DNA of 64,000 bases from Xanthostigma xanthostigma (lineage: Eukaryota; Arthropoda; Insecta; Raphidioptera; Raphidiidae). The notes under the pieces are model-generated. The model did no database searches, had not been told where the DNA came from, and worked only from the letters and a program-made list of their open reading frames with translations. The DNA is taken from NCBI GenBank assembly GCA_963575645.1, contig OY754470.1, positions 48,577,201 to 48,641,200 of the forward strand, read 5' to 3'. The position numbers were made by a program, and so were the translations under genes. Every line of letters starts with the position of its first letter. Positions within the stretch are counted from its first letter, which is position 1. This document shows positions 321 through 56,225 of the stretch, piece by piece.

Positions 321-480
321 AATAAAATTATCGACCTATTTTTTAAGACTGTATATTGACAAAAAATTATAAAATTCAATATCTCAATAAATGACGTTTC
401 GGTCCGGATTTGGAGCTTTATCAGAAATATGTAATTTTTTGTCAATATACAATCTTGAAAAATTGGTTGATAATTTTATT
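321..480 (-). repeat. Inverted-repeat element, family P, copy 1
   Basis: Two arms of about 49 bases (321-369 and 432-480) are inverted copies of each other, each carrying AATAAAATTATCRACC at the outer side. The centre holds, on the minus strand, a hammerhead-like core: CTGATAA (418-424, a decayed CTGAAGA), a stem-forming segment, then GAAACG (GAAA complement at 397-400). Other copies are at 33.5, 44.3 and 56.0 kb, so this is a real interspersed family. Beyond the right arm a family-specific tail starting TTGAAGA continues to about 515. No coding capacity. The family is possibly derived from a Penelope-like retroelement; that is an inference from the motif. Confidence 0.65.
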
Positions 481-515
481 TATTTGAAGATTTCTATCAG
501 ATGTCGATCTAAGAT

Positions 516-1347
516 TTAAATAACATTTTAACTGTCCTCATATTTTTAATATTATTAAAATCCTTAAAAAAGAACATTTACAATGTAAACTTATATATTT
601 AATTAAATAGTTCCTCTTTTATATTTAAATAATTTATTTTTTATTTTGATATTACACCTTCGGACTTGAAACGCAAATTATTTTTTAGGGTGTTGGGCTT
701 ATTAAGGGTGTAATTAAGATATATTCAGTGAAAAACTAAATTTAAGTTTAAGATTTACAGACTTTTGGAAAATCCTATATCAATTGAAATAGATAACAGG
801 TCAAAAAAATTAATTTTTTACGGTAATCACTAGCGCAGAATGTTATATTACTTTTTAAGTATAATTAGTAAAATTGACATTATAAAATTAAAATAAATAT
901 CCGCACAAGAAAAATAGATTAGATCATAAAAATACGTAAGTTGTACGAAGTAATACATAATCAGAATGTACACTTTTTTTACCAGCTTTGCGTGAATCCA
1001 TGACTGAACACTTGACTCGATATTTCGAACTACACACATAGTAAGTATTTCTTTGTTTTGTTTGGCATGCCTACATCTCAGATAAGCCCCAAGCACAATG
1101 AAATGTTTATATTTGATATTTAATTACGCCGACTTAAATTATACGCGTTAGAATAGTATGTTCATTGAAATGACATATCATTTGATAGCCTGAATTAATT
1201 AATAAAAGTTACGTTTTAGTCATTGGATTTCTATGGACGTCTTTTTTTCTGATCATGCATTTCTACCTACCATATTATATAAACATGTTTTACTTTTTGA
1301 CTTTTTACATTTGTAAACCTTAATATTGAATTACTTAACAGTAAAAC
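516..1347. other. AT-rich stretch, nothing recognised
   Basis: Very AT-rich sequence with only short chance reading frames, none showing a recognisable domain. I see no inverted-repeat termini and no repeat shared with the rest of the window. The leading 1-320 bases are similar. Confidence 0.5.
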
Positions 1348-1359
1348 AAATTCCGAAAA

Positions 1360-1594
1360 AAATAAAAAATAGAGAATAGTTACTTCTTACCACAACAAGT
1401 TTATTAGTGGATGTACATTTCGAGAGCTAAGCTCTCATCTTCAGCAATACACTAAACTGAGTTTAGTGTATTGCTGAAGATGAGAGCTTAGCTCTCGAAA
1501 TGTACATCCACTAATAAACTTGTTGTGGTAAGAAGTAACTATTCTCTATTTTTTATTAGATTCAAACCACAGTGCTCTTAATATTTTTGTTATT
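1360..1594. mobile_element. Palindromic element with flanking 12-bp direct repeat
   Basis: Bases 1361-1557 form a perfect inverted repeat with 98-base arms around a single unpaired base at 1459. A 36-base single-copy tail follows (to 1594). The 12-mer AAATTCCGAAAA occurs directly before (1348-1359) and directly after (1595-1606) the unit, as expected of a target-site duplication. Each arm carries one copy of a hammerhead-like motif in opposite orientation. There is no open reading frame. Variable-length target duplications and head-to-head copies fit Penelope-like retroelements, but the class is inferred. The absence of any arm mismatch indicates recent formation or gene conversion. Confidence 0.75.
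1460..1530 (+). ncRNA. Candidate type I hammerhead-like ribozyme
   Basis: CTGAAGA (1474-1480) is followed by T, then a 6-bp stem II (GAGAGC 1482-1487, loop TTA, GCTCTC 1491-1496), GAAA (1497-1500), a short stem III TG-TA-CA (1501-1506) and a TC/C junction at 1507-1509 where a hammerhead would cut. Stem I can form from 1461-1473 and 1509-1523: five pairs with one mismatch, an internal loop, then five more. The order of parts matches minimal type I hammerheads of Penelope-like elements. The oddity is the extra T between A9 and stem II, seen in all related motifs here. A mirror copy lies on the minus strand at 1409-1444. Confidence 0.45.
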
Positions 1595-1606
1595 AAATTC
1601 CGAAAA

Positions 1607-2058
1607 GATAAAACTTTTTTATTTAATATTTGTAATTTACGAAATAACATTAGCCTAATTCCATTAAAGCTAGTTGCGTAATGTTCTCTAAAAATATTCA
1701 TAAAAAAATGAAAATACTTCTCTGATAAATGTTTTCATTTTTTGGCGTAGCGATTCATTAGTACTGTTGGCAGAATCTTAAATGGAACGAAGGTCATATA
1801 TTTTTGTCTCTATGATACACTATAATATTTCACTCAGAAATACAAAAATATGCGACCTCTTTTTGTATAGGCAGACTGTAGGAACCATTCAATTATACAA
1901 CGAAACATTATTCATTCTGAAAGGGTAATATTTTATTATTGTTCTGAATATTAATTTTTTGTTCGTAGCTTACAAGATCTTTTTTGTTTAGTACCAACCT
2001 AATAAATAATCTGATTTGAATGGGATGATACATACAATTGAACTTTTAAATAAAAAAA
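1607..2058. other. AT-rich stretch, nothing recognised
   Basis: No repeat termini, no reading frame of note, no hairpin beyond background. Confidence 0.45.
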
Positions 2059-2130
2059 ATTGGTTGTCTGTAAAGTCGGTTTACGGACGATAGTTTTACG
2101 TGATAACGTATTCCGTAATACATAACCTAA
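2059..2130 (+). repeat. TTGGTTG-family repeat, left-end fragment (copy 1)
   Basis: About 72 bases match the left terminus of the repeat seen in full at 24.3, 26.5, 35.0, 37.7, 40.6 and 44.5 kb. It starts AATTGGTTGTCTG, includes the terminal hairpin TACGT-GATA-ACGTA nested in TTACGGA/TCCGTAA, and stops abruptly after CATAACCTAA. A different palindrome begins at the break, so this copy is truncated. Confidence 0.85.
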
Positions 2131-2250
2131 AAAAACATATAATAACCTTGAACAAGGTTATTATATGTTTTTTTTATTGTAAATTAACAAATATTTTATA
2201 ATTAGAATCCCTGAAGATGGCAATAAACAATGTGCCGAAACGTAAGATAA
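2128..2250 (+). repeat. Hairpin followed by hammerhead-like motif
   Basis: A near-perfect hairpin with arms of about 21 bases (2129-2173, two-base loop at its centre) is followed 38 bases later by CTGAAGA (2211-2217), T, GGCA/TGCC stem II and GAAACG (2237-2242). The spacing of parts matches the motif at 1474, but stem I and a cleavage junction cannot be drawn convincingly. Probably the decayed end of another palindromic element. Confidence 0.4.
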
Positions 2251-2394
2251 TATATTAAATGAATAATACAAAGTACAGCATTCATTGATCCATAGCCGCT
2301 ATTTCTCCATCCAATTATTCCGATTAAGGATCGCAAATCTCTACAAATTTTGTAGTAGAAGATAATATATAAATAATAATTTTGTAATTAAATG

Positions 2395-2483
2395 TTAGGT
2401 TCCTACTGTCCTAAAAACCTTTCGGGCCGGGAGGCCCCTCGGGACAGAGGCCCATAGAATTTAGTCCTATTGTTACGCCACTG
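2395..2483. repeat. Truncated MITE end with GTTACGCCACTG terminus
   Basis: A locally GC-rich piece ends in GTTACGCCACTG (2472-2483), the inverse of CAGTGGCGTAAC, a terminus common in insect MITEs and resembling the inner element at 46.1-46.5 kb. No matching left terminus is visible, so the copy is a fragment. The bases from 2484 to 2953 hold nothing I recognise. Confidence 0.4.
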
Positions 2484-5808: not shown

Positions 5809-5984
5809 TATAAGGTTCGTTCCAAGCAGCGGCGAACGATAATAAAACAGTACACAGTTTTGTCACTGCGCAAGACTAATTTGCGCACTAGCTCAAAAAT
5901 CGATACTGCGCAAGACAGTCTTGCGCAGTAACAAGACTGTGTACAGTTTTATTACCGTTCGCGGCTGCTTGAAACGAACTTATA
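5809..5984. mobile_element. Short inverted-repeat element (MITE/foldback)
   Basis: Arms of about 70 bases pair with few mismatches. The outer ends are TATAAG(G)TTCGTT and AACGAACTTATA, and the arms share GCGAACG, TTTTATTA/TAATAAAA and ACTGCGCAAGAC. A smaller palindrome (GCGCAAGAC / GTCTTGCGC) sits near the centre. No coding capacity and no second copy seen in the window. Confidence 0.7.
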
Positions 5985-6462: not shown

Positions 6463-6492
6463 GTCATTTCTATCTTCGCAACCCGCACAGCA

Positions 6493-13655: not shown

Positions 13656-14422
13656 TTTTACAAAATCCGCATGTATTTTTTACATTGGTAAAAAGAAAAA
13701 AAAACTTAAAATAATTTAAGACACGTTTTAGATTGTTTCACTAACGGACTTTCATTTATTTAACAATTGTTTCGAAAAGGGTTCCTTTCCCTCAGCTTCC
13801 AAGTTCTAATTGAAAAGCTGGTAAAAATTTCAACTGGATTTTCATAAATATACAAACCAAAAACATTTACAAAAGGTCTACGAATATAATTTTTTCAAGT
13901 GGTCGTATTTTATATTAATAATAAATTATATGTTTCAATATTAGTTGCCAAGTGAAAGATGTGTTAATGTTAAACATGATTTTGATTTTTAAGTTGAAGA
14001 TGCAACATGATACTGAGCCCATATAATCCATGGAATTGGTGAAATAAAAAAAAATGTCTCATATAGCACAGATCTGACAAGAAATGATTCTAAAATAGTT
14101 GCTCGTACACAAAAATAATGAAAGATAATCTTATTCTCAAAAACGAGAATATTATGTTTAAAAATTCAACACTCGTTTCGCTAACAAAGTTAGCATCATT
14201 AAACAAGGAGTATGAGTATAATTATCTCTTGACCTTTAATCCTCCCAGGTAAAGAGAATTTGAAACTAGGTATACATACGGAGCAGTGTCCCTCAAACTT
14301 TTATTTTCCGTTGCACTTTCAAGAGCGTCTGGTGATGTACCTATCATCAAAGTAACAAATCGATGTTTATTTTGATTCGGATTTTGTTACAAATGAAAAT
14401 AATAATTAATAATAAAACGCTT
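13656..14422. other. AT-rich stretch, nothing recognised
   Basis: No clear feature. Confidence 0.4.
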
Positions 14423-14587
14423 GAAAATTCTACAAAATATTTTCTCTCTCTCGACGATCGATTCGGACAATCAGTCCATCTTTAGAAGTACAGACCTATA
14501 CTCTCTCTATAGGTCTGTACTCCTGAAGATGGACTGATTGTCCGAATCGATCGTTGAGAGAGATAAAATATTTTTTTAAGAATTTTC
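14423..14587. mobile_element. Palindromic element, family S, copy 1
   Basis: Long inverted repeat with arms of about 75 bases around TATACTCTCTCTATA. The right arm carries CTGAAGA (14523-14529), T, a GGAC/GTCC stem, then GAAT (14544-14547) where the related motifs have GAAA. The flanks (GCTTGAAAATTC on the left, CATGTTCTACCAA on the right) are shared with 20216-20420, so these are two copies of one family. No coding capacity. Confidence 0.75.
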
Positions 14588-14639
14588 TCGTATTTTTTTT
14601 TATTAATCATGTTCTACCAAGTGCCGAGTGAAAAAGCAG

Positions 14640-19228: not shown

Positions 19229-20215
19229 TAAAAGCTTGTCGCGAGATTTTCCTGTGTAAATTTTATGAAATACATACATTTTTTCTTAGAATTATTTGTG
19301 TCAAGATCAAGTTACTTATTGTATTCTTGTTATTTTTTAGGGGGCTTGAAGAAAAGGGAACAAAACATGTTTTTGAGTTTTGGAGGTTTTCGAGGATCTA
19401 CTGTACTAAAATACCTAACTAAAAGTTACATAAGTCAATTACTCGCTCAGAAAATTTATTTCAAAATGACCACTTTTTTTTGTTTTGTTATTTCGACCAA
19501 TTATTTAGTTCTCAGCTTACAATCAGAGAACTAATGAAATTAATAGACTTTGCGCTGTAAGACGACGCCAATACGGTATGCGATCTCCTTAAATTCTGCG
19601 AAGTACGATACTAGAAGAACGCATTAATGCGTTGACACGTACATTTTCTTGTGTCGTTAGACTTTCGCTCGGAATCCTTTTATGGTTTCCTATAGCTCAA
19701 AAGAGAAAACCACCCAAAACTTACTTGTAAGGAAATGTAACTAAACAGGTTATAATGTCCGGTAGTGAAAAAATTCATTATAGTAATTGGGTCCTTTCAG
19801 TATATTTTTATGGAAAATGTTTCTTTTCTATTACATATTTTAGTTTCTACAGAGTATCTACTGATTTTTAATCATTTCTACGCCGTGCAATGTTTGCGAA
19901 TTACCGTAATTTTTATTAACCTTCCTTGTCAGAGTCAAATCAACTTTCATAATATATTCGATCGGTTTCAGAGGACAATACAATTTTTAAAGATCTAGTT
20001 TGTTTTCGAAATTTCCGTCATTTCTATCAAATGTTTCGTTTTTATTATCATTGAAACATAATATTATTTTTATAAAAATTACAAAAGAAAAATCAAATAG
20101 TTTTGTGTTTTTATTCAAAATAATTCGAGTCATTTGAAAGACAGCTTGAAGACATTTGAAAATCTAGTCTAATCTAAGCATTCTCAAATAATTTATTTAT
20201 TTACAAATAATAAAA
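19229..20215. other. AT-rich stretch with a pogo-like end
   Basis: CGAGGATCTACTGTA ends at 19405. On the minus strand it reads TACAGTAGATCCTCG followed by AAAACCTCC, a pogo/Tigger-type terminus without a visible partner. The rest shows nothing recognisable. Confidence 0.4.
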
Positions 20216-20420
20216 AAAGCACTTGAAAATTCAATAAAATATATTTTCTCTCACGACTGATCGTTTTGAATCATCAGTCCATCTTCAGGAGTACAGTCGA
20301 GAGAGAAAATATATTTTGTAGAAATTTCTGGTATTCTTTTTATTATTTGTTATCATGTTCTACCAATAAATTTCCGAGTAAAAAATCAGTGCAAATTATA
20401 TTTATTTATTTATTTTTCTT
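20216..20420. mobile_element. Palindromic element, family S, copy 2 (deleted)
   Basis: Homologous to 14412-14660: the GCACTTGAAAATTC left flank, TTTTCTCTC/GAGAGAAAA arms (20250-20310) and the CATGTTCTACCA right flank. Most of the right arm is lost. On the minus strand it keeps CTGAAGATGGACTGATGA, but the GAAA part has decayed to CAAAACG. Confidence 0.65.
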
Positions 20421-23599: not shown

Positions 23600-24282
23600 A
23601 ACATGTTTTTTTAATAATGTTTTTCGACTATTAGTAGGTGAAAGATATATGCTTTTGTTGTTAAATTGTTGATTAGTCGATAATTAAAGACTTTGTTACT
23701 CTTCTTAATTTTGATTTATAATAAATAATTTAAAAAATACACCATGTTTTTCTTAAGTGAACGCCATTCCCCCGTCCTACCCTAATCATCAAATAGCAAT
23801 GCAGTCGCGAAACGGTTTTGAAATCGTAGACTTTCGCTACAAAAAGTAGAATGTTTGCCCAGATTTTAATTTAATTAAAATAGACACGTTCATCCACATC
23901 ATATGCTTTAGAAGCGACAGTATACGAAGTCGGTCGGGTAAGAGCATATTTTATGAAGTTTAATTAGATTGCAAATATTTTTCATGCAGTATATATCTTC
24001 ATTACATGGAGAGTAAGGTAAATGTGAGTAAAATGTCATATGATAAATGATCATTTTCAAAGTTCAGATAATATTTCCATTTTTTAACAGAACAATTTTT
24101 CAGCTTAAAGTAAAGAGAAGGTATATTATTTTTAGCAGTCTTGCAAATCCTTTATATGCGAATGAGAAAATATTTTGCCGGTTTTCATCACACAGGTGTG
24201 AAAAGTTTACATAATAATGTATGACAGGTCATATAATACAAGAAACAAAAGCTGCTGTGGCTAACCATACAATGTGTTAAAA

Positions 24283-24880
24283 AATTGGTTGTCTGTAAAG
24301 TCGGTTTACGGACGATAGTTTTACGTGATAACGTATTCCGTAATACATAACCTAAATTTATATAATAATTATAATAATTCGAATCTATGATATTGCATCT
24401 TTCGCTTCAAATTTAGGTTAATTTTATTTATTTAAATTACTCACCATATAATATAATTGTTTTTTTAACATTCTTTCGTATTTTTTTTAAGTCTCAAAGA
24501 TTAGCTGTCATAATATTTATAAAACAATTGTTTCACTGTTTATAATATAAAATTCCAAAACCTACTTACAATATTTAAGTATTATCATACGTCAAAAAAT
24601 TGATTTTTATAGTGATAAAATTTGTAAGAAAACGATTTTTTCGAGAGATGAGACCTAGCTAAAACGATTTTTTGCCCCCCAAAATCCCTTTTCAGTAAAT
24701 TTCATCCAAATCGTTAGGGCCGTTTTCGAGAAAAGCACGCACAGGGTCAGGCGGAACGTTACGCGTTACGAACGTTAGGAACGTTAGGAACGTTACACTT
24801 TTTCGTGCATGCAGCCGGTGTTTTATCAATTTATAAGATTGGTGATTCATCAATTTATAAGACGTTATCACGTCAAAAAA
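24283..24880 (+). mobile_element. TTGGTTG-family repeat, copy 2 (type A interior)
   Basis: Runs from AATTGGTTGTCTG to CACGTCAA. The left end has a hairpin TACGT-GATA-ACGTA, and the right end GACGT-TATC-ACGTC, so the ends carry inverted ACGTGATAACGT words. The interior includes a segment (CGTTTTCGAGAAAAGCACGC, AAATTTCATCCAAATCGTTA) shared with copies 3 and 7, and a short AACGTTAGG minisatellite. Non-coding. The class is unknown to me; it is flanked by A/T runs rather than a clear target duplication. Confidence 0.85.
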
Positions 24881-26488: not shown

Positions 26489-27650
26489 ATTGACGTGATA
26501 ACGTCTTATAAATTGATGAATCACCAATATTATAAATTGATAAAACACCGGCTGCATGCACGAAAAAGTGTAACGTAACGTTCCTAACGTTCGTAACGCG
26601 TAACGCATAACGCATAACGCGTAACGTTCCGCCTGACCCTGTGCTTGCTTTTCTCGAAAACGGCCCTAACGATTTGGATGAAATTTACTGAAAAGGGATT
26701 TTGGGGGGCAAAAAATCGTTTTAGCTAGGGCTCATCTCTCGAAAAAATCGTTTTCTTACAAATTTTATCATTATAAAAATCAATTTTTTGACGTATGAAA
26801 ATACTTAAATATTGTAAGTAGGTTTTGGAATTTTATATTATAAACAGTGAAGCAATTGTTTTATAAATATTATGACAGCTAATCTTTGAGACTTAAACTA
26901 AATACGAAAGAAAGTTAAAAAAACAATTATATTATATGGTAAGTGAAATTATTATACAAATCTATTAATTTTGTGAAAAAATATATGCAGGCAACCCAAA
27001 TTACGCTGCTGTACTACATATAGTCGATAGCAGGCATTTTCAGTAAATGCCTTTATGTGACTATAACTAATTGTTGGTACACTGATAGAAGGATTTATTA
27101 AATATTAATAAATACATTTATTAACGGTTTGAATATATTTATTAGCATTTAATAAATATTTATTTGAGTAACTAATGCGTCGTTACAATCGCCTATATTC
27201 ACGCAATAACCTCACTATTTTTATACAAATTTATATAGAAAAATATTTTATACAAATTTATATAGAAAAATAGCTGTATAAATGCAATGTTGTCTAATGC
27301 ATGGCGCGACGCGGTCGGTTGTCTTTGTTTGCCGTACATGGAAATTAGAAGCAAACGTATGTCTTGTCTTAACATGAAAACGGCTGCATTTCTAATGTTT
27401 AATTCAATTTTTTGACATTAGTATATTGTGAAATGCAACGCCTTCTAAGTTAAGTATTGGAATAACTAATTATTATTAGAACATAATACTTTGTAAGTTG
27501 CAAACGTCACTTTTGACATTTCTTATCATTCCGACACCAAGGATAAGCGGATTGAAACCAAATTTTGGGAGGTTTAGGTTATGTATTACGGAATACGTTA
27601 TCACGTAAAACTATCGTCCGTAAACCGACTTTACAGACAACCAATTTTTT
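26489..27650 (-). mobile_element. TTGGTTG-family repeat, copy 3 (A+B recombinant)
   Basis: Longest copy (about 1.16 kb). From the TTGACGTGATAACGTC end it first carries the type A interior, then the type B interior (CATGGCGCGACGCGGTCGG, GTACATGGAAATTAGAA, GGATAAGCGGATTGAAACC), then the TTGGTTG end. A 27-base segment ending TATATAGAAAAATA is tandemly doubled near 27230-27270. It is either the ancestral form from which types A and B were deleted, or a recombinant. Confidence 0.85.
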
Positions 27651-27880
27651 TTTAATAACAGCGCGACTAAATAAGAAATTGATTATTATAACTCGTCTAT
27701 TTTCAATATTTTGACATTTTTCAATAACTTTTTAGCATAATTAATAGCGGGTTATGTTTTTAGTTCATGATCTATTTTATAGCGAATGTGCCATTATGGT
27801 AAAAACAGTGCTAGTAAGTGAGCCATAATATCACGCACGAGATACATATAGTATTTCTTGCACGGACCCCTTATAAAATA
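27651..27880. other. AT-rich spacer
   Basis: Nothing recognised. Confidence 0.4.
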
Positions 27881-32613: not shown

Positions 32614-33524
32614 TATGGAAGTATAGATTTTAAATTTGTTTCAATTTGCAACTTTGATGACATAAGTTGAATAGAGTTTGAAGGAGCAGCTGTAAATGTG
32701 CTAATAATGACTCTTTCAGCTACTCAATAACATAATAGTGTTTGCAAAAATGAATTCATTATTAAATAGACGTCTAAATGTTATTTACAAGGCACGTGTA
32801 TTTAATTAAAGTAATTGCAAAGATATGAAAGGACGTAAATATAAAATAGGAATCGTGGTATTCTGAAACCGAGTAGATTTAATTAACTTAATAGTACTTA
32901 ATTTGTAATGAATTCAAAACATATTTTTGAGTTTATTGGAAATTAGGATGAAGTTATTTAGATGTCATTTTGTTCAACATTTACCGCTTTATTAATATAA
33001 CACAAAAAAGATATTCCGTGAAAAACATCCTATTTCAATTGTATTCTAGCATATTTCTGATCTGATAAAGGTTGTCCAAACCTGTTCTTAATGTAAGCGT
33101 CACTACGTACAAAGTTTCCATTCAGATTATTTGGGGGAAGATAGTGTTTAAACTTCTGTAAATACCCGTTAATCTACGACCCTGGATGTAGAATATTCAT
33201 GTCACACAATTTTCCGATAAGTCTTTACACCCGCCGCCCAACTATCTACAAGTTTATGTTAACAGCTGAGTTTGAAGTAGACAAATTGTAGTCGTACCGT
33301 CACGCGTACGAGAGCCGTTATGATGTTTGAACTACTTACAGCCGATAATCAATAAAGGCTGTGTTCTTTCGTTAACTCATATTTCTTCTCAAATAACGAC
33401 TTTGTAAAATATTGAGAACGTTTCGAAGTCAATTCACATTACTAAGTCGGAAAGATTATTATTTTTTGAAGTGTAACTTCTTTACCCGCTATGAGGGCAA
33501 TTTTGTCCAAATCTTTAAAAGAAA
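32614..33524. other. AT-rich stretch, nothing recognised
   Basis: A segment at 33412-33470 resembles 34670-34720 (GAAAACATTTC.AAG.CAATTCA), suggesting an old shared repeat. Confidence 0.4.
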
Positions 33525-33790
33525 AGATCCAAATCCGGATCGAAACGTTAATGTATTAATTATATTTTTTGTTAATATATTGTCTGAAAAATTGGTCGAT
33601 AATTTTATTTATTGAAGAGTAATTTTGTAATGAAAACGAAAAGCGAGCCAACAAGAGTGGGAAAAATGGAATGAGCTGCTAGTGAACATTGATTGGCTGG
33701 CGGGTAGTTAACGTACGAATGCGGTAGGAGATAAACGCGATAGACACGCCTCTTTCTCTTTAGCGTTTACTTGAACACAAATGCTCATCT
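33525..33790 (+). repeat. Family P right half plus GC-richer flank
   Basis: GATCCAAATCCGGATCGAAACG (in parts: GATCC stem, GGATC, GAAA at 33542-33545) is followed by the P right arm (TGAAAAATTGGTCGATAATT to 33610). CTGAAGA has decayed to AAAGAAA. The following 33620-33790 has a CCAAT-type word (GATTGGCTGG) and CGATAGACACGC, and weakly matches 37430-37620. No left arm. This copy supplies the uninterrupted sequence of the site into which repeat copy 7 inserted at 44.5 kb. Confidence 0.6.
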
Positions 33791-35020: not shown

Positions 35021-35027
35021 CACAAAA

Positions 35028-35600
35028 ATTGGTTGTCTGTAAAGTCGGTTTACGGACGATAGTTTTACGTGATAACGTATTCCGTAATACATAACCTAAA
35101 CCTCCCAAAATTTGGTTTCAATCCGCTTATCCTTGGTGTCGGAATGATAAGAAATGTCAAAAGTGACGTTTGCAACTGTCAAAGTATTATGTTCTAATAA
35201 TAATTAGTTATTCCAATACTTAACTTAGAAGGCGTTGCATTTCACAAAATACTAATGTCAAAAAATTGAATTAAACATTAGAAATGCAGCCGTTTTCATG
35301 TTGCATTTATACAGCTATTTTTCTATATAAATTTGTATAAAAAAACTGTTTAGGCAAATTCTGTTATACGAAATCTATGTAAAATGTTCTCCTCTTTCGT
35401 TTAAGACTGGTTTCAAACCGATCTGATTTAAATTGAGCGAGAAATTAGCAAAAAGCACGCACAGGGTCAGGCGGAACGTTACGCGTTACGAACGTTAGAA
35501 ACGTTAGGAACGTTACACTTTTTCGTGCATGCAGCCGGTGTTTTATCAATTTATAAGATTGGTGATTCATCAATTTCTAAGACGTTATCACGTCAAAAAA
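35028..35600 (+). mobile_element. TTGGTTG-family repeat, copy 4 (type B)
   Basis: Runs from AATTGGTTGTCTG to CACGTCAA with the type B interior (GGATAAGCGGATTGAAACC inverse, GGCAAATTCTGTTATACG). It lacks the ATGGCGCGCG block seen in copies 3, 5 and 6. A short AACGTTAGRAACG minisatellite is near the right end. Confidence 0.85.
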
Positions 35601-37692: not shown

Positions 37693-38393
37693 TTTGACGT
37701 GATAACGTCTTATAAATTGATGAATCACCAATATTATAAATTGATAAAACACCGGCTGCATGTACGAAAAAGTGTAACGTAACGTTCCTAACGTTCCTAA
37801 CGTTCCTAACGTTCGTAACGCATAACGCGTAACGTTCCGCCTGACCCTGTGCGTGCTTTTTGCTAATTTCTCGCTCAATTTAAATCAGATCGGTTTGAAA
37901 CCAGTCTTAAACGAAAGAGGAGAACATTTTACATAGATTTCGTATAACAGAATTTGCCTAAACAGTTTTTTTATACAAATTTATATAGAAAAATATTTTA
38001 TACAAATTTATATAGAAAAATAGCTGTATAAATGCATTGTTGTCTATTGCATGGCGCGCGGGCGACGCGGTCGGTCGTCTTTGTTTGCCGTACATGGAAA
38101 TTAGAAAATAACGTATGTCTTGTCTTAACATGAAAACGGCTGCATTTCTAATGTTTATTTTTTGCCATTAGTATTTTGTGAAAGCAAAGCCTTCTAAGTT
38201 AACTATTGGAATAACTAATTATTATTAGAACATAATACTTTGTAAGTTGCAAACGTCACTTTTGACATTTCTTATCATTCCGACACCAAGGATAAGCGGA
38301 TTGAAACCAAATTTTGGGAGGTTTAGGTTATGTATTACGGAATACGTTATCACGTAAAACTATCGTCCGTAAACCGACTTTACAGACAACCAA
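37693..38393 (-). mobile_element. TTGGTTG-family repeat, copy 5 (type B)
   Basis: Runs from TTGACGTGATAACGTC to ACAACCAA. The minisatellite near the right end has three successive AACGTTCCT words. The CG-rich block GCGCGCGGGCGACGCGGTCG is intact and the 27-base ACAAATTTATATAGAAAAAT word is doubled. Non-coding. Confidence 0.87.
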
Positions 38394-38940
38394 TTTTTTT
38401 TTCATATAATACAAATGTTGACCCACAAAGTTTCACTTCAGACTCGTGATATTTAGATGTCCCAGTTTCTTAAATTAAGAAATGAGATTTTAGGAATAAT
38501 TGTTTTTTAATTAAACAGATCTTTAAGATTATAGAGGTTTGTTTAGAGAAGCAATGTTTTTTTGAATCATAGTATATATTACATAACAACCGGAGCGAAT
38601 CTCCACAGTACAAAAAGTACGAGCCAGACAATACTGTTATTTATGGTTATTATTATCAACACTACACTTTTTGTGGCGTGTATCTTTCTGCGCAAATCTA
38701 AAAAAAAAATAATTGCTTTTCAGAAATTTTGCTTTTATGATAAATGTTGTACGTCTTGCTAATATACTTTTTTAACAAGTCTATCTTCAAATAGAAGTTT
38801 TTTATATCCTGATGCCAATTTATGCATTAGATTTCAACGAAATTAAAACTAATATTATATTATTTATTATTGAATTAGGAAACACCAAACAATAAACATA
38901 TAGAACGATTTGCCTTGACAGACAAATTTTATTTATGCAT
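38394..38940. other. AT-rich stretch, nothing recognised
   Basis: A 66-codon frame at 38562-38762 has no recognisable domain. Confidence 0.35.
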
Positions 38941-40560: not shown

Positions 40561-40626
40561 AAAGATTGCTTTGCCCTCTATTCCAGAGGTCGTTACTGTA
40601 AGCACAATTAAGTTCTTACTTAAAAA

Positions 40627-41334
40627 AATTGGTTGTCTGTAAAGTCGGTTTACGGACGATAGTTTTACGTGATAACGTATTCCGTAATACATAACCTAAC
40701 CCTCCCAAAATTTGGTTTCAATCCGCTTATCCTTGGTGTCGGAATGATAAGAAATGTCAAAAGTGACGTTTGCAACTGTCAAAGTATTATGTTCTAATAA
40801 TAATTAGTTATTCCAATACTTAACTTAGAAGGCGTTGCATTTCACAAAATACTAATGTCAAAAAATTGAATTAAACATTAGAAATGCAGCCGTTTTCATG
40901 TTAAGACAAGACATACGTTATTTTCTAATTTCCATGTACGGCAAACAAAGACGACCGACCGCGTCGCGTCATGCATTAGACAACTCACAACATTGCATTT
41001 ATACAACTATTTTTCTATATAAATTTGTATAAAAAAACTGTTTAGGCAAATTCTGTTATACGAAATCTATGTAAAATGTTCTCCTCTTTCGTTTAAGACT
41101 GGTTTCAAACCGATCTGATTTAAATTGAGCGAGAAATTAGCAAAAAGCACGCACAGGGTCAGGCGGAACGTTACGCGTTAGGAACGTTACGCGTTAGGAA
41201 CGTTACGCGTTAGGAACGTTACGCGTTAGGAACGTTACGACCGTTAGGAACGTTACACTTTTTCGTGCATGCAGCCGGTGTTTTATCAATTTATAAGATT
41301 GGTGATTCAACAATTTATAAGACGTTATCACGTC
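40627..41334 (+). mobile_element. TTGGTTG-family repeat, copy 6 (type B)
   Basis: Complete from AATTGGTTGTCTG to CACGTCAA, with the type B interior closely matching copy 5 in the inverse orientation. The minisatellite near the right end (41165-41252) is expanded: the 16-mer AACGTTACGCGTTAGG occurs four times in tandem. Copy-number change of this block distinguishes the copies. Confidence 0.88.
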
Positions 41335-41454: not shown

Positions 41455-41806
41455 TAAGGAAAACTAATTTTGACAATATTACAAAAGAGAGAGAGTTAAT
41501 GTAACAAAACTTGCTACATTAGCTCCCCCCCTACGCGTGGAAAAAATTGAAATCAAAAGAATATTTTTCAAACCAACTGCAAAAACTTACGCGCAGGAAA
41601 CAAGTTGTGAGATATTTCAACTATATTGATTAAAATCAAAATCATTAGGTACCTACATGTGAATAAAAAATGCACACTAAAAAAAACTAATTTTGACAGT
41701 ATTACAAAAAAGAGAGAGAGAGTTTTGATACAACTCTTTCTCTCTTTTTTGTAATATTGTCAGAAAAGAGAGAGAGAGAGAGAGTTAATGTAACAAAATT
41801 TGCTAC
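41455..41806. repeat. Local duplication with GA microsatellite and hairpin
   Basis: ACTAATTTTGACA.TATTACAAAA occurs near 41462 and 41687. TTAATGTAACAAAA.TTGCTACATTA occurs near 41495 and 41785. Between them GACAGTATTACAAAAAAGAG and its inverse form a hairpin at 41695-41761 with (GA)n runs in the stem. Bases 41335-41454 and 41527-41686 are otherwise featureless. Confidence 0.7.
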
Positions 41807-41851: not shown

Positions 41852-42000
41852 ATCGAAAGTAAAACAATACTGAACTTTTTAAACTTGCATTTAATACTGA
41901 CGCTTCGACAAGTTTTGTATCATCTTCAGAGTTAGAAAACGTATGGACACGTCAGTATTACATGCAAATTTAAAAAGTTCAGTATTGCTTTATTTTCGAT
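41852..42000. mobile_element. Palindromic element with hammerhead-like motif (family T)
   Basis: The outer arms ATCGAAAGTAAAACAATACT and inverse (…TTATTTTCGAT) continue through AACTTTTTAAA and TAATACTGACG for about 55 bases. On the minus strand the centre has CTGAAGATGATAC, a TTGTC half-stem and GAAGCGTC. GAAG replaces GAAA. One arm has lost the motif. No coding capacity. Confidence 0.7.
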
Positions 42001-43266: not shown

Positions 43267-44334
43267 CTTATCTATGGTATTCGTTTTTAGTTATCATAGA
43301 ACACATTTGGCATCAAATGTAAAAATTAACCAAAACGTATTTATTAGTTACCTACCTATCTTGTTTTATTTTTTGATAGAACAATAAAATAATCTAATTA
43401 GGTACTTGAAATAATAATTTTCACAATTTTAGTTGTTTGCTCAGGTTATACGACAAATTACCTGAAAAAATTTTAAGATTTTTATTCTTTAAGTTGATTA
43501 CTTTTTCAACATATTTAGTGCTATTATTTAATACTTTACATGCTTCTAAAGGTTGAGAAAATCTGAGGAATTTCAATCAATTTTATTTATGTACATAAAT
43601 TTTAAAATCATTTATAAAAATACAGTATTATCAAGAATTTTAAACACTCTTGAAGCTTCTTTTAAACTTTCGTGAGACGATACCGAGCCTTATTTGCACG
43701 AACAATTTTCGTTGGTTTCGCATAGTACAAGATTGACGTCACGACTCGTGTTTTCGCGCACGATTATATATTTAAAATTTTGAGTGCTATTTTTTTCTGT
43801 AAAATGATTGTATGAAAACGAAATAAAAATTCCGATGGACAAATACTACGACACAAACATTTTGAGATTTAAAGTCAAATAGCTTAATCTCTGTTAAATC
43901 GAATAATTACTTTTCAAGCAGGGTGACTGAAAATTTTACTTTGCTTTTCTTATGTGATCACAATCTGAGGGCATTGTTAAATCAGATTTTCCGACAACGC
44001 TCTGTGGTACAGTTTTTAAACGCTATGCTGTACAACAATCAAAAAAAGCAGAAACATTAAAAAAATGGTCAACTTCTGCTATCAAAATAATAAAGGCTTA
44101 CATCCGCTTTGCACATGTGCAAATAATAGATTTCAGCGTACATTTCAAAAAATTTATGGACAACGTTTTTTTTATTGCACTATAGTTAAACCTGCGACGC
44201 TGTGACTGATGGAGAAATATAGAATTTGATTTTGAAAAACGATTTCCTCAGTGCTTTAAATTTTATTTTGGAGTCTAGAAAACTTAAAAATATTTTAGAA
44301 AATCAATATTTCGTAACTATACTAATATTGTAAA
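43267..44334. other. AT-rich stretch, nothing recognised
   Basis: TGACGTCACGACTCGTG at 43735 is a short GC-richer patch. No frame or termini. Confidence 0.35.
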
Positions 44335-44336
44335 GA

Positions 44337-45210
44337 ATAAATAAAATTATCGACCAATTTTTCAGACAAAATATATTAACAAAAAATAATAATTAATACC
44401 ATTCAAAACTTAAAGCAAATTTTTTTCAAATACCAATATTAGAAACTAATTGTTAATCAATTTTTATATTTTCTCGATCAGTTCTGAAGAAGATCCAAAT
44501 GCGGTCCGAAACGTTAATGTATTAATTATTATTGACGTGATAACGTCTTATAAATTGATGAATCACCAATCTTATAAATTGATAAAACACCGGCTGCATG
44601 CACGAAAAAGTGTAACGTTCCTAACGTAACGTTCCTAACGTAACGTTCGTAACGTTCCGCCTGACCCTGTGCGTGCTTTTCTCGAAAACGGCCCTAACGA
44701 TTTGGATGAAATTTACTGAAAAGGGATTTTGGGGGGCAAAAAATCGTTTTAGTTAGGTCTCATCTCTCGAAAAAATCGTTTTCTTACAAATTTTATCATT
44801 ATAAAAATCAATTTTTTGACGTATGAAAATACTTAAATATTGTAAGTAGGTTTTGGAATTTTATATAAACAGTGAAACAATTGTTTTATAAATATTATGA
44901 CAGCTAATCTTTGAGACCTAAAATAAATACGAAAGAAAGAAAGTTAAAAAAACAATTATATTATATGGTGAGTAATTTAAATAAATAAAATTAACCTAAA
45001 TTTGAAGCGAAAGATTCGAATTATTATAATTATTATATAAATTTAGGTTATGTATTACGGAATACGTTATCACGTAAAACTATCGTCCGTAAACCGACTT
45101 TACAGACAACCAATTTTTTTTTTTTGTTAATATATCTTGTCTGAAAAATTGGTCGATAATTTTATTTATTGAAGAATTCTAATCAGACGTTAATCAAAGA
45201 TTTGAATATT
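44337..45210 (+). mobile_element. Family P element split by a TTGGTTG-family insertion
   Basis: Left arm 44337-44385 (AATAAAATTATCGACCAATT), then a plus-strand hammerhead-like core: CTGAAGA (44484-44490), A, a GATCC/GGTCC stem with one G-U pair, and GAAACG (44508). Then a break at about 44530 and the right arm (TGAAAAATTGGTCGATAATT) at 45140-45165 with its usual tail. Comparison with 33545-33575 (ATTAATTAT then ATTTTTTGTTAATA without interruption) shows where the insertion occurred. Confidence 0.75.
44531..45113 (-). mobile_element. TTGGTTG-family repeat, copy 7 (type A)
   Basis: Type A interior as in copy 2, from TTGACGTGATAACGTC to ACAACCAA, inserted in family P. The inferred empty site places the element ends next to the terminal hairpins and leaves a lengthened T run (12 or more) on the TTGGTTG side. 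No longer coding block is present. Confidence 0.85.
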
Positions 45211-45863
45211 GTAAAGAGTTTGTAGGTGTAGATGTAGGAGGTCGTCTCTGAAACTACTCAACCGATTTTTAAAAAAATTTCACCAATATTTAGAATGGAC
45301 CTTCAGAATGTATATTTTCGCGTTAAAATAAATGCGCTTTTCGTGGAGACCAATTTTGCAACATAAGTCGACGAAAAAAAATTCTGAAACTTTTATATGG
45401 AAAGAATTTTCTGTTCTGTCGTATTTTTCGCAGGTTTCACTGTACCTGGCCTTGTTAAAAAATATGTAAATCACCACACAGCTGAGTTTTATTGGTGTAA
45501 TTACAAATATACATATATAGTGTGAGCCATAAGTATTGCGAAAGGTTTCAGGAACTGATTCTTCAGAGCATTTTAAGAAAAAAAGTTCTCATAAATATGG
45601 ACTCAATAATGCTTACCCGCTGAACTATAATAACCCTACAAAAAACGGGACAAGATTAAAAATAGGCCACCGAACACTTATTTCTAATCGTGGGGTTCTT
45701 GATATCAGTAGTTATATGTTTTTCTTTACTAGTTATTTGCAAAAGTAGAGCCTTTATGAAAATTTTAGAATTTTTTGGTTTTATTGCAATAAAACCGTGT
45801 TGTTTAGTATTTCAATTTCTAATTTTATTTTATATAATATGTACTATATACAAAAAATATATA

Positions 45864-46628
45864 CAGGGTGTCCCATTAGGAATGGGACATGGAACAACCG
45901 CAGATTCTCCAATTCAAAATAAAACGATTAAGCGAAATATGCTTAGATAAAATGTTACTCGTTTCCGAAAAACGGGGTGTTGAAGTTGAAAATTGAAAAA
46001 TTATTAATGTCCATAATTTTTTTAATACACCGTATAATTTTACTCAAATCGGCACACTTGTTAAATATCATAAAATGCACATAACAATAAAAAAATTAGT
46101 TCAGTACGCTCTACCAGTGGCGGACGGCAGGAGTAAGTAATGCTTGTACCCCTTCTAAATGTTACGCCGCTGTCTAAATTTTAATTTTGACTATAATTTT
46201 AATATATTTGATATTTTCTAAGTCAATAATGTACACTTGTTAGTTTGTTGTAAAGTCATTGGTTTTCGAGATATACGCAGTTTATTTAAGACAAAATTGT
46301 AAAAATGAATATTATTAATAATAATACAAATAAAAAGTACATGTCTATCTATCTTTAACTGCGAATATCTCGAAAACCAATGACTTTACAACAAACTAAC
46401 AAGTGTACATTATTGACTTAGAAAATATCAAAAAAATTAAAATTATAGTCAAAATTAAAATTTAGACAGCGGCGTAACATTTAGAAGGGGTACTAGCATT
46501 ACTAACTCCTGCCGTACGCCACTGGTAGAGCGAGTAACATTTTATCTAAGCATATTTCGCTTAATCGTTTTACTTTGAATTGGAGAATTTGCGGTTGTTC
46601 TATGTCCCATTCTTAATGGGACACCCTG
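45864..46628. mobile_element. MITE with CAGGGTGTCCCATT termini
   Basis: Inverted termini of about 100 bases (CAGGGTGTCCCATTAGGAAT and inverse, then AACCGCAGATTCTCCAATTC, AAATATGCTTAGATAAAATG) are flanked by TATA on both sides. The left side carries about 130 extra bases. The centre holds a second inverted-repeat unit at 46114-46525. Confidence 0.8.
46114..46525. mobile_element. Inner inverted-repeat unit, CCAGTGGCG termini
   Basis: CCAGTGGCGGACGGCAGGAG and its inverse open arms of about 170 bases (ATGTTACGCCGCTGTCTAAA, TTATTGACTTAG, TTGTTAGTTTGTTGTAAAGT) that meet around a short AAT-rich loop near 46310. The terminus matches the CAGTGGCGTAAC group. Arm identity is very high. Confidence 0.75.
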
Positions 46629-53330: not shown

Positions 53331-54280
53331 TATATATACAAATTTCAGCTCTAAACAGAAGTTGTGGAAGTTTGAGGGAAACGCTGGTATGTTTTCGCCA
53401 TCAGTATCTACCGTACCGACATCGAACCAACGACGATCACGTGACTCGAATGATAACACGCTCACCTCTCTCACGGTACGTTCGTATATCTACATATCTA
53501 TACGGGGTGTCCTTACGACTGCGAAACTTAACTGAACTGGTGAAAGTTTCAATAACCGGAGTTTCAATAATAATAATACACTGAAAATATGAATTAATAC
53601 TAGGTTTAATTTCGGAAAAAATTAAAATAAAAAATTGATACTCATGACTGGTAAATGGAGAGATAGTTATCCGGGTTTTCCCAGATGTCCTGCAAACTAA
53701 TCACATGCTTCACTGCCCTCTATAAATTATGATCACACGTGTTGATGTCCACCAATTGAAACAAAGTTTAAAGAAAGCTGTTTCTTTAACTAGTTCGCAT
53801 CATTTTTGATGTTTTTGTATTTTTGTTTTTAACAGATATTTGTAGTCTACACTTTTAGCTATAATCAGTAATTAATTGGTTATTCTTTGTAACTGTTGGT
53901 AATACGTAAATAAATTAATAAGGCGATATCTAAATGACAGAAACTCGTCAGTAATCAAACACGTTTCACATCCCGGTATTTCTGGTGGAATGTGTTCTGT
54001 TTCAAAACAATTTGTAGAAACTTCAAAAGTATATAGCGTCGCGAAGAGTTAACAAACTTTAAAACTTAAGTAAAATGAACCTGAATTTATGCATCTTCTT
54101 TCAGTTTTTTTTTCAAAGACCACCAGCTGTCTGACTCTAGTCAAAGTAGTTGAAATTAATAACAAACTGAAAATTCAATTGATATACTTTTTTAGTTCTC
54201 TGAACTTGGGTCGAGGTTTGTAATAGACGCGTTATTTAAATAATGACAACTCGACGCAACATTTCTTTCTGAAGTACCAA
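53331..54280. other. Stretch, nothing recognised
   Basis: Short frames at 53269-53584 overlap the element end and have no domain. Otherwise AT-rich. Confidence 0.35.
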
Positions 54281-54600
54281 ATAATAATAATAATAATAAT
54301 GCGTTAACGTCCGTTTCTCGACTTTATGTCATAACAGACGCCATTCGCACCATTACTATTTTCCATCTATCACACTGCCTGTCATTGTCTACATTTTTAA
54401 ACTTCCACTTAATTAATAGCGATGGGCGAATAAAAGAATTTTAAGGCATTAGGATAAGGTAGGCAAATTTTAACATTTTTAACAGGAGAAGGAACCATCT
54501 CGATATTTACCTGGATAACCTCAACAAGATGGCCGGTACAGGAATTGCCGTTTCTCGGCGAGAGGCAGCAGGAAAAAGTCCCAGCCACATCTGCCTGTTA
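54281..54600 (-). mobile_element. tRNA-derived SINE, copy 3, head missing
   Basis: On the minus strand: the body from CAGATGTGGCTGGGAC to a tail of seven ATT units (54281-54300). The tRNA-like head is absent, ending at 54600. It points away from copy 4, which begins 270 bases further on. Confidence 0.85.
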
Positions 54601-54871
54601 GTTATGAACCGTCTATAGATACTGCGGAAGGTAAGGTGTGCGAGTGCACTTTTCACTGCTGATCAAGAATGACTAACCGAATTTGACGTGAGAAAATCAA
54701 CGGTGCGTACAGCAAGTCAACTCAAATGTTAACTAGATATATGCAAAACTATAACCCGTTTAACTGTACCTTATGCTCATAAATTAAATAATAATTCAAA
54801 CATTTAAAATTATAAACAGTGTACAGTGTGCCTTGAAATGCAATAAATAGTTATATATTCCTAATTATAAA

Positions 54872-55215
54872 CCGAGCGGGGTGGCGTAGTGGTGAGAGCA
54901 CTAGACTTGCATTCGGGAAGAACCGGGTTCGAATCCCTGCGGGGGCAGATGTGGTTGGGACATTTTCCTGCTTCCTCTCGCTGAGAAGATAAACATCGAG
55001 AAGGTTTCTTATTCAAGGCCATGGCCGATTATCTGTCAAACTCCTGGCTCAAAATTCGCCTACCTTATCCTAATGTCCTAAAACTCCTTCATTCGCCCAT
55101 TGCTAATAATTAACTGGAAGTTTAAAAATTAGAAAATAACGGGAAGCGTTGATAGATGGAAAATAGTGATGGTGCGAATGGCGTCTGCTATGACAAAGTC
55201 GAGAAAAGGACTGTA
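54872..55215 (+). mobile_element. tRNA-derived SINE, copy 4, full length
   Basis: Complete head with A-box TGGCGTAGTGG (54892) and B-box GGTTCGAATCC (54926-54936), then the family body and a short AATTATTTATATT tail. The head does not fold with a tRNA acceptor stem, so it is SINE rather than a tRNA gene. It is the best copy for defining the family promoter. Confidence 0.9.
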
Positions 55216-55714
55216 ATTATTTATATTGTTTTAAATAACAATAATATTATATTCTGTATCGCAGGAATTAATACGGTGACAAATAAATTTTGTTTATTAT
55301 CTAGCCTAGTATAGAATGTTTTAAAAATGTTACTTAAACAGTAACATTTCCGTAGAAACGCATCGTAATTGCAACGGAGTTTCCCCTGTTCTTCATTTAT
55401 TGGTGGTGGCAACAGATTGCCGACCGCTGGAAATTAGAAAAAAAAAAACATAAAATATTTTAGTCGAAAGACATTCGATGCTCACATAAAAAAGGCCATT
55501 TGCCGGAAACTGTCCCTTCAAACCTTTGATACGGTTTGTTAACTTAGATATTTTATTTTTCACAATTCTTATAAAATAGGGCATGGCTAAAAATATATTT
55601 CCTTTAAAAAGGGTAATGTAAAATTGTTAAAAGAAATAGAAAGTTTATTACGTTTAGAAAGATTATTATATATTATAATATAAAATTGTGTAAGGCCACC
55701 AACGGCCCCCCAGT
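55216..55714. other. AT-rich stretch, nothing recognised
   Basis: The 63-codon minus-strand frames here show no domain. Confidence 0.35.
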
Positions 55715-55850
55715 ACGCTATTGTCAAGTTGTTATTGTTACATTAGTTTTGTTGGTTTGCGACTTTGTAGTTTTTCAACAGACTGTACAAGCGCAAGCCC
55801 GCATTCGCATCTAACTTCCGAGCCTTTTAGATTCGTATGGCGAGTATTAT
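55715..55850 (+). repeat. Half copy of the element at 58575-58899
   Basis: About 130 bases (GTACGCTATTGTCAAGTTGT, TTTTTCAACAGACTGTACAA, CGCATCTAACTTCCGAGCC) match 58757-58899 in the same orientation. The left inverted arm is missing. Confidence 0.8.
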
Positions 55851-55983
55851 AAAACATGCATATTTTTATGGTCGAAGATCAAGAAGACATCTGTTTTTGA
55901 TCGACATGCACCAATATTTTTGGTTTGATGTATTAAAAGAATAGGATTTTTTTTAAATTTTCGAGACAATTGAAAGTTTTCAA

Positions 55984-56225
55984 TAAATAAAATTATCGAT
56001 CAACTTTTCAGACAAATATATTAACAAAGAATATATAAATTCAATACATTAACGTTTCGGTCTGGATTTGGATTTTCTTCAGAACTGATCTTAAAAATAT
56101 AAAAAGTAATTTCAAACAATTTTTAATAAGTAGTCATGGATATAATTGTGAAAAATTGGTCGACAATTATTAATTTTATTTATTGAAGAGTTCTAATAAG
56201 ACGTTAATCAAAGATTTGACAATTG
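55984..56225 (-). mobile_element. Family P element, most complete uninterrupted copy
   Basis: Left arm 55984-56030, right arm 56155-56200 with the family tail (TTGAAGAGTTCTAATAAGAC). On the minus strand the core is CTGAAGA (56076-56082), an A, a stem (AATCC... with GGACC-like partner) and GAAACGTTAATG (GAAA complement at 56055-56058). Use as reference for the family. Confidence 0.75.

What the first reader, a model, noticed from the sequence alone, without database searches (positions are those of the whole stretch)
321..56225. One motif, CTGAAGA-N-stem-GAAA, in or beside at least four unrelated palindromic families
Motif copies at 1474, 2211, 14523, 41.9 kb (minus), 44484 and 56.07 kb (minus), plus decayed ones at 397, 20.27, 21.46, 33.54 and 34.08 kb, sit in elements whose arms are not alike. 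All keep exactly one extra base between CTGAAGA and stem II. Recurrent association of a ribozyme-like motif with palindrome architecture suggests either several lineages of one retroelement class or a formation mechanism tied to the motif.
Basis: partly seen in the sequence, partly recalled or inferred. Interest (0 to 1): 0.75.

Follow-up and report, generated by a model that had tools for sequence, protein, structure and literature searches.

The report
Palindromic mini-elements carrying hammerhead-like motif
Several families of short palindromic mobile DNA in this eukaryotic genome share one RNA-cutting-type motif and the insertion footprint of Penelope-like retroelements, and the junctions of one near-identical family suggest each insertion is made by copying the same RNA twice, in opposite directions.

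Summary
The motif is real and above chance: CTGAAGA occurs 14 times against 5.4 expected. With a stem required, the register with one extra base occurs 4 times against 0.28; registers with none or two occur 0 times. Across seven family representatives stem II, and more weakly stem I, covary. The motif is hammerhead-like: core kept, stem III mostly reduced to self-complementary ACGU, one extra base after A9. Rfam reports no hammerhead.

Families C and A carry the footprint reported for Penelope-like retroelements: head-to-head arms, a ~36-nt optional tail, target duplications of about 10-14 bp (PMC3846280, PMC11167929). No reverse transcriptase was seen; the genome search for its endonuclease domain did not complete.

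In family C (825 first-look candidates; 21 copies read) 42 arms show 3 internal differences, two of them one mirrored change, while the central joint takes eight forms. Exactly one arm has the tail in 20 of 21. This favours two cDNAs of one RNA, started at two sites and joined at their 3' ends. Covariation and footprint are shown; the mechanism is inferred.

The parts
1361..1557 (.). Family C: two 98-nt head-to-head arms, perfect palindrome with one central base
   Evidence: (I8); 825 first-look genome candidates, 40 scored
1558..1593 (+). Family C tail (36 nt), present at this end only
   Evidence: 20 of 21 copies with exactly one tail
1348..1359 (.). Family C target duplication, left copy AAATTCCGAAAA (right copy 1595-1606)
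   Evidence: an equal or longer repeat at 1 of 2000 random places
1474..1500 (+). Hammerhead-like motif, right arm of C: CTGAAGA-T-GAGAGC..GCTCTC-GAAA
1418..1444 (-). Hammerhead-like motif, left arm of C (mirror copy)
2211..2240 (+). Family D motif CTGAAGA-T-GGCA..TGCC-GAAACGT; 46-nt palindrome 2129-2174 lies upstream; borders of D not established
14403..14605 (.). Family B palindrome; motif 14523+ (GGAC..GTCC, GAAT in place of GAAA) and decayed mirror copy on the other arm
20203..20350 (.). Second family B copy, CTGAAGA at 20288-, one arm shortened
41852..42000 (.). Family E palindrome, motif 41929- at its centre (decayed stem, GAAG); 880 genome candidates, 40 scored
316..517 (-). Family A copy with decayed motif (about 426-397, minus); flanking repeat 303-315 and 518-530, 13 bp
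33524..33613 (+). Family A single arm, 5'-truncated just inside the motif
44336..45205 (+). Family A copy, motif 44484-44511, tail on the right end; interrupted by an unrelated repeat from about 44529 to 45119; flanking repeat 44325-44335 and 45206-45216 (11 bp as typed, 13 as scored by the script)
55975..56217 (-). Family A copy, motif 56082-56055 (minus), tail on the other end; flanking repeat 55965-55974 and 56218-56227, 10 bp
   Evidence: 4162 genome candidates for A, 40 scored

Best explanation
These are non-autonomous, ORF-less insertions of Penelope-like retroelement type (clearest for families C and A). Each arm is a pseudo-LTR-like stretch read outward from the centre: RNA 5' end at the centre, then the hammerhead-like motif, then an inner reverse-transcription start site, then about 36 nt further out a second start site (the end of the tail). 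On insertion the target is cut with a stagger of about 10-14 bp and both target strands prime copying of the element's RNA. One cDNA starts at the tail end and the other at the inner site. Each runs to the 5' end of its RNA template or stops early, and the two cDNA 3' ends are joined head to head with 0-3 extra bases. Where both cDNAs run to the RNA 5' end (family C) the product is a perfect palindrome. Where they stop at different points (family A) the product is a lopsided inverted repeat with the motif near the middle. Shown: covariation of the motif, fixed arms, one tail per insertion, flanking direct repeats, variable joint and a mirrored private change. Inferred: RNA intermediate, two start sites, joining of cDNA ends, and mobilisation by a Penelope-like protein encoded elsewhere. 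Whether the motif cleaves RNA is unknown.
For: Motif: over 7 representatives, 15 cells changed on both sides against 5.2 +/- 2.1 in shuffles (0 of 500), covariation score 0.653 against 0.227 (0 of 500), cells paired 79.6% against 56.9% (0 of 500); sliding the partner by 1-3 columns lowers paired cells to 14-41%. The two other measures are weaker: 6 pairs with a change on both sides against 3.6 (23 of 500 reach it), 11 further pair types against 7.6 (30 of 500). The pair next to the core forms in 9 of 10 copies with one extra base and in 0 of 10 with none. Footprint: 20 of 21 C copies have the tail at exactly one end (1 has two) and 20 of 21 are 232-234 nt long. Flanking direct repeats of 8 nt or more were found by script in 17 of 21; one of these, L011, lies in a simple TATAA repeat, and the script may add a few element bases. 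The window copy's 12-bp repeat was found, and L015 and L016 show 12-bp repeats by eye in the flanks printed. L023, the two-tailed copy, shows none. In the window C and three A copies have flanking repeats scored at 12, 13, 13 and 10 nt; repeats at least as long occur at 1, 2, 0 and 3 of 2000 random places. Joint: 42 arms x 96 nt show 8 differences: 5 in the outermost two bases, 1 in L020, and 2 that are the same site changed in both arms of the window copy. The centre takes 8 forms in 21 copies: CTCAG 7, CTGAG 5, CTTAG 3, CTAG 2 and four singletons. In family A the antisense arm stops at four different points in 4 of 4 two-armed copies (BLAST ends at reference positions 55, 44, 66, 39 of 139). 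One arm reaches the tail end (137, 139, 139, 136) while the other stops at 111, 104, 117-119 and 122. Published parallels: head-to-head inverted pLTRs, an optional 31-bp tail on one of them, TSDs of 8-10 bp, some without TSD (PMC3846280, passages and Discussion); the Anolis element cleaves and extends both target strands, starts RT internally, has a tail lying between two RT start sites, and has its ORF starting at stem II with the cut 26 bp downstream (PMC11167929, passages and main-text section). In E the distance from the A of ATG to the predicted cut is 25 nt by counting in L029.
Against: No Penelope-like ORF was found: 61 window ORFs scanned gave no Pfam match and the genome search for GIY-YIG did not complete. 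The C copies read are the best-scoring matches to the window copy, so arm identity is favoured by selection (the query spans the centre too, so centre changes were penalised equally). Random choice of start site would give some copies with two tails or none; 20:1:0 calls for an ordering rule that is not explained. L029, the one E copy read beside the window's, has a tail at both ends, and its lopsided centre is shared with the window copy, which looks inherited rather than made anew. B and D do not show the footprint cleanly. One A copy has a single arm. The A joint positions are local-alignment ends and so approximate. The extra base would be expected to disturb a classical hammerhead core.
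Confidence: 0.7

Rival explanations
1. Foldback or MITE-type DNA transposons: the palindrome is inherited as DNA, moved by a transposase that recognises the two identical ends, and the motif is a passenger.
For: Fixed length (232-234 nt in 20 of 21), perfect symmetry, many genome candidates, flanking direct repeats.
Against: Ends are not symmetrical: one end carries 36 extra nt in 20 of 21 C copies, which a transposase acting on identical ends would not give. Centre varies while arms do not. A copies have different joints. The motif points outward in families with unlike arms.
Confidence: 0.12
2. Self-priming: a Penelope-type cDNA or antisense RNA folds back at its end and copies itself, giving a hairpin that becomes the palindrome (the interpretation offered for the rotifer elements in PMC3846280).
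For: Explains perfect arm identity and the mirrored change in the window copy; published for related structures.
Against: Copying back a whole cDNA would give both arms the same end; exactly one tail in 20 of 21 C copies and in 4 of 4 two-armed A copies is not expected, though L023 and L029 have two. Direct joints with no extra base (CTAG, 2 of 21) leave no room for a turn-around loop.
Confidence: 0.15
3. Inherited palindrome with an unstable centre: one master palindrome is transcribed whole and copied, and the middle base changes afterwards because palindrome centres are prone to breakage and repair.
For: The window copy and L029 of family E share one lopsided centre, and most E loci show the two strand matches offset by the same 10 bases at about 83-92% identity. 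Several C copies share the same centre.
Against: C centres differ by 0-3 nt additions, with A absent among 15 single-base centres, and neighbouring arm bases are changed in only 2 of 21 (L013, L018); repair at palindrome centres is expected to remove arm sequence (recalled). It does not by itself explain a defined tail-less end.
Confidence: 0.2
4. Classical retrozymes (circular RNAs with type I hammerheads).
For: Hammerhead-like motif in small non-coding repeats.
Against: Retrozymes are tandem direct repeats of 150-450 bp (PMC7229834, passages); the C copies read are single inverted pairs with a tail and flanking repeats.
Confidence: 0.03

Closest known systems
Penelope/Poseidon-type Penelope-like elements (PLEs), including the Anolis element PAc
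   Same: Hammerhead-type motif just upstream of the reverse-transcription start region; optional tail between two start sites; head-to-head inverted terminal copies; short target duplications; AT-rich targets (PMC11167929 passages and main-text section; PMC3846280 passages and Discussion)
   Different: No ORF seen between or beside the arms; the whole C element is two arms plus one tail (about 233 nt) and recurs at fixed size at the loci read
Minimal PLE hammerhead ribozymes acting as dimers (Cervera and de la Pena 2014; Lunse et al. 2017; neither paper held, seen as reference entries and in the secondary accounts PMC7761336 and PMC6155905, passages)
   Same: Conserved core, stem III reduced or lost, type I layout with stem I pairing across the cut
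   Different: One unpaired base between A9 and stem II in the families with an unbroken stem here; whether published PLE hammerheads have it could not be checked
Classical type I hammerhead (Rfam hammerhead families)
   Same: CUGANGA and GAA core; stem II covaries, stem I partly
   Different: Extra base after A9, 2-bp self-complementary stem III; no hammerhead match in Rfam even at E up to 10
Animal non-LTR retrozymes
   Same: Small, non-coding, hammerhead-bearing, possibly PLE-mobilised (PMC7761336, passages)
   Different: Retrozymes are tandem direct repeats; these are inverted
Foldback DNA elements and MITEs
   Same: Short, palindromic, repeated, flanking direct repeats
   Different: Asymmetric tail, variable centre, RNA-type motif

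Membership tests
Penelope-like element (PLE) insertion | Head-to-head inverted pLTR-like arms | tested here: met
   C: both arms in 21 of 21 copies; A: 4 of 5 copies examined have both arms, the 33.5-kb copy has one
Penelope-like element (PLE) insertion | Optional ~30-40 nt tail on one of the arms | tested here: met
   C: exactly one tail in 20 of 21, both in 1; A: one side in 4 of 4 two-armed copies; E: both ends in L029, by eye
Penelope-like element (PLE) insertion | Short target site duplication | tested here: met
   Direct repeats of 8 nt or more by script in 17 of 21 C copies; window C and three A copies 10-13 bp. Empty sites were not compared
Penelope-like element (PLE) insertion | Telomerase-like RT with GIY-YIG endonuclease in the element or a partner in the genome | not tested
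   Genome search for PF01541 did not complete (first asked, last); no Pfam match among 61 window ORFs
Hammerhead ribozyme, type I | Core C3 U4 G5 A6 N7 G8 A9 and G12 A13 A14 | tested here: met
   CTGAAGA and GAA invariant in 7 representatives; representatives were chosen by this core, so this is by construction
Hammerhead ribozyme, type I | Stem II pairs directly after A9 (N10.1-N11.1) | tested here: not met
   The zero-extra register does not pair at its first position in any of 10 copies; with one extra base it does in 9 of 10. Filed as hammerhead-like, not as a classical hammerhead
Hammerhead ribozyme, type I | Stem II supported by covariation | tested here: met
   89% of cells paired, 3 of 4 pairs change on both sides, the fourth is invariant G-C
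Hammerhead ribozyme, type I | Stem I pairing across the predicted cut | tested here: inconclusive
   67% of cells paired, 3 of 3 pairs change on both sides; first three pairs form in E, H and three A copies, two in L013, one in L004, and the first pair fails in D; C and B lack the ACGT and were placed by position
Hammerhead ribozyme, type I | Self-cleavage | not testable with these tools
   Needs an RNA assay
DNA transposon foldback element or MITE | Identical terminal inverted repeats at both ends | tested here: not met
   36-nt tail at one end only in 20 of 21 C copies
Animal retrozyme | Tandem direct repeats of the hammerhead unit | tested here: not met
   The 21 C copies read are single inverted pairs. 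A-family places at C11:7029757, 7037382 and 7045006 are 7.6 kb apart and were not examined

The most novel reading that the evidence does not exclude
Mirror retrotransposition: a twofold-symmetric Penelope-type complex copies the same RNA twice, once from each target strand, and joins the two cDNAs at the capped RNA 5' end. The extra central C/G would then be a cap-templated base, and it restores a TCAGT initiator on one strand at the centre, so every insertion remakes its own promoter and the palindrome is a device for propagating a promoter-less RNA unit. In 15 single-base centres of form CT-X-AG the base is C 7, G 5, T 3, A 0 (the six copies with other forms were left out of this count), about 2 in 10,000 by hand binomial at 32% G+C. 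The copies may not be independent, and the initiator consensus is recalled.
Probability: 0.3. Interest if true: 0.82.

Novelty: new variant of a known kind. Interest (0 to 1): 0.62.

Why it matters
How Penelope-like elements insert and what their hammerheads do are left open in the passages and sections read here (PMC11167929, PMC3846280, PMC7761336). A near-identical, perfectly symmetrical, 233-nt family records the joint of every insertion in sequence. It turns the choice between self-priming and double priming into a counting problem: tail rule, centre base, mirrored variants. It also suggests that some palindromic repeats filed as MITEs may be retroelements, and that a hammerhead-like motif with one extra base may be common yet missed by Rfam.

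Tried and rejected
Rejected: chance motif; eleven unrelated families (A and B hold six of the eleven positions); classical hammerhead by Rfam (no hammerhead up to E 10); coding PLE remnants in the window (61 of 223 ORFs of 55 aa or more were scanned, most but not all of those of 70 aa or more, no Pfam match). RNA folding of single motifs is uninformative: the four z-scores are -0.77, +0.53, -0.93 and -1.49. A first tail-and-TSD script missed left tails because of a loose match; it was replaced. That script in turn missed three repeats (window copy, L015, L016) that the printed flanks or one search show.

Not achieved: copies of A and E beyond those in L025-L029, any genome search for B and D, any search for a Penelope-like protein, a genome-wide motif count. 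These rest on a machine that answered only (and, to say that a family name was unknown).

Literature: searches listed no paper whose title or abstract start describes ORF-less palindromic Penelope-type elements with a variable joint; the library is partial and only nine of the listed papers were opened. Cervera 2014, Lunse 2017 and Craig 2021 are not held and are cited from other papers.


Full report
WHAT THE WINDOW IS. The window is 64 kb of a 623-Mb, 28-contig assembly (contig 7), 26-39% G+C in 2-kb steps. By size and composition it is eukaryotic; no tool names the organism. None of 61 ORFs scanned (of 223 of 55 aa or more) has a Pfam match.

THE OBSERVATION. CTGAAGA occurs 14 times on both strands, against 5.42 in dinucleotide shuffles. 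With GAAA at 8-30 nt the looser pattern occurs 10 times against 2.98. With a stem of 3 bp or more required, only the register with exactly one base between CTGAAGA and the stem is populated: 4 sites against 0.28, none for zero or two extra bases; two of the four are mirror copies in one palindrome and one is probably chance. The arms of A, B, C and E have no similarity to one another at E 1e-3, so a motif shared across at least five families is real.

THE MOTIF. Loci fetched for other reasons carry two further families, called G and H here (L013:783 minus, L027:1215 plus), and a copy in L004 whose motif is A-like but whose flanks differ. In ten copies the pair next to the core forms in 9 with one extra base, 0 with none, 2 with two and 1 with three. 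By total pairs the one-extra register is strictly best in 6, tied in 3 and beaten in 1, the 44484 copy. A seven-row alignment with loops trimmed by hand to three bases (A is represented by L004) was tested against a hammerhead layout. 80% of cells pair, 15 cells are changed on both sides against 5.2 +/- 2.1 in shuffles (0 of 500), and paired cells fall to 14-41% when the partner is slid by one to three columns; two other measures are weaker, reached by 23 and 30 of 500 shuffles. Stem II is strong (89%). Stem I, predicted between the three bases before CTGAAGA and the three bases after ACGU-H, is weaker (67%) but changes on both sides at all three pairs. The rows were picked by their core, and the register was known beforehand, so the test is of pairing, not of discovery. 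After GAAA most families read CGT, so stem III would be the self-complementary ACGU, which could form between two copies. Published accounts describe minimal hammerheads in Penelope-like elements that lack stem III and may cleave as dimers (PMC7761336, passages; PMC6155905, passages; Lunse 2017 by title only). The extra base is a departure from the classical core. PMC3088659 (passages) rejected hits with any mispairing next to the core, and Rfam reports no hammerhead here even at E up to 10. I therefore call it hammerhead-like. [quoted passage not shown] its motif did not cleave without the protein, and motif mutants did not affect insertion in vitro (PMC11167929, main-text section). In family E the ATG formed by A9, the extra T and the first G of stem II has its predicted cut 25 nt on (L029, counted by eye). 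The extra base may thus be part of a start codon overlapping the motif in coding ancestors. In the window copies of B, C, D and E that frame stops within 14 codons, and A reads AAG in place of ATG (by eye).

THE ELEMENTS. Family C: the genome search gave 825 first-look candidates, of which 40 were scored; the 80 matches listed cover nearly the whole query at 96-100%, mostly as a plus and a minus match at one locus. Twenty loci were fetched and read with the window copy. All 21 have both arms, head to head, motif pointing outward. Exactly one arm carries a 36-nt tail in 20 of 21, both in 1 of 21. Flanking direct repeats of 8 nt or more were found by script in 17 of 21; the window copy's 12-bp repeat was found by direct search; L015 and L016 show 12-bp repeats by eye in the flanks printed; L023, the two-tailed copy, shows none; L011 lies in a simple repeat and L006 runs into N. 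Family A: three window copies with both arms have flanking repeats of 10-13 bp and a tail on one side. Including L027, the antisense arm ends at four different places in four copies (local-alignment ends). One A copy (33.5 kb) is a single arm. Family E: 880 candidates, 40 scored; L029 has a tail at both ends and a lopsided centre shared with the window copy. B and D are less clear.

THE JOINT. The 42 C arms differ at 8 of 42 x 96 places: five in the outermost two bases, one in L020, and one site changed in both arms of the window copy. The centre takes eight forms in 21 copies: CTCAG 7, CTGAG 5, CTTAG 3, CTAG 2, and CTGTG, GTGAG, CTTGAG and CTGCTAG once each. So arms are copied faithfully and as a matched pair, while the join is made with 0-3 extra bases. 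The fetched copies are among the best-scoring ones, which favours identical arms; the query spans the centre, so this does not favour variable centres.

HOW IT MOST LIKELY WORKS. The Anolis Penelope-like protein cleaves and extends both target strands, starts copying inside its RNA rather than at the end, and its tail lies between two observed start sites (PMC11167929). If both strands are primed on copies of one RNA, one from each start site, and the cDNAs are joined where copying ends, the result is what is seen: inverted arms, outer ends about 77-110 nt downstream of the motif, one tail, target duplication, variable joint, mirrored variants. In C both cDNAs reach the same point, presumably the RNA 5' end; in A they stop at different points. 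The rotifer study proposed self-priming for similar structures (PMC3846280, Discussion); a fold-back copy would carry the tail on both arms, so the tail rule argues against it here. That exactly one tail is the rule is unexplained; one guess is that the second copying must start upstream of the first on the same RNA. The steps from RNA to DNA are inference. The protein is presumed, not found.

WHAT COULD NOT BE DONE. The genome machine answered four data calls (30, 31, 33, 34). The search for a GIY-YIG partner, the searches for B and D, and wider sampling of A and E did not complete. Published sequences of Penelope-like hammerheads were not available, so whether the extra base is general is open.

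NOVELTY. Hammerheads in Penelope-like elements, inverted pLTRs, tails and target duplications are known. In the listings and the parts of papers opened, I did not see described an ORF-less, fixed-size palindromic form, or the use of its joint to tell how it forms. I rate it a new variant of a known kind.

Noticed in passing
window 14458-14550: The B palindrome resembles the microRNA precursor family mir-4662 on both strands (51.5 and 49.3 bits, best E 5e-8, below that family's cut-off of 97), including a CTAAAGAT-type stretch. It may be generic hairpin similarity or a hint that mir-4662 comes from a like element.
   Followed up: no
window 2048-2131, and 24279-24356, 27573-27652, 35024-35100, 38322-38401, 40604-40699, 45042-45125: A 77-97 nt stretch, 94-100% identical, recurs seven times in the window and seems to be the edge of a longer repeat. 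One copy of that repeat (about 44529-45119) lies inside the A element just downstream of its motif.
   Followed up: partly
L025 about 251-310: A C element lies a few bases downstream of an A motif (..GAAACGTTAATGTATT|AATAAAAAA), so these families can insert into one another.
   Followed up: no
G000 C11:7029757, 7037382, 7045006: Three A-family matches with identical scores lie 7.6 kb apart, which looks like a tandem array whose unit might hold a longer, perhaps coding, element.
   Followed up: no
L013:783 minus; L027:1215 plus: Two further motif families (CTGAAGAAGCCA.., CTGAAGAAGACA..) turned up in flanks fetched for other reasons, so the motif may be common in this genome.
   Followed up: partly
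window 46107-46532, 41691-41765, 5815-5979: Other close inverted repeats for which no motif was noted (arms 195, about 37 and 76 nt) that may be further palindromic families.
   Followed up: no
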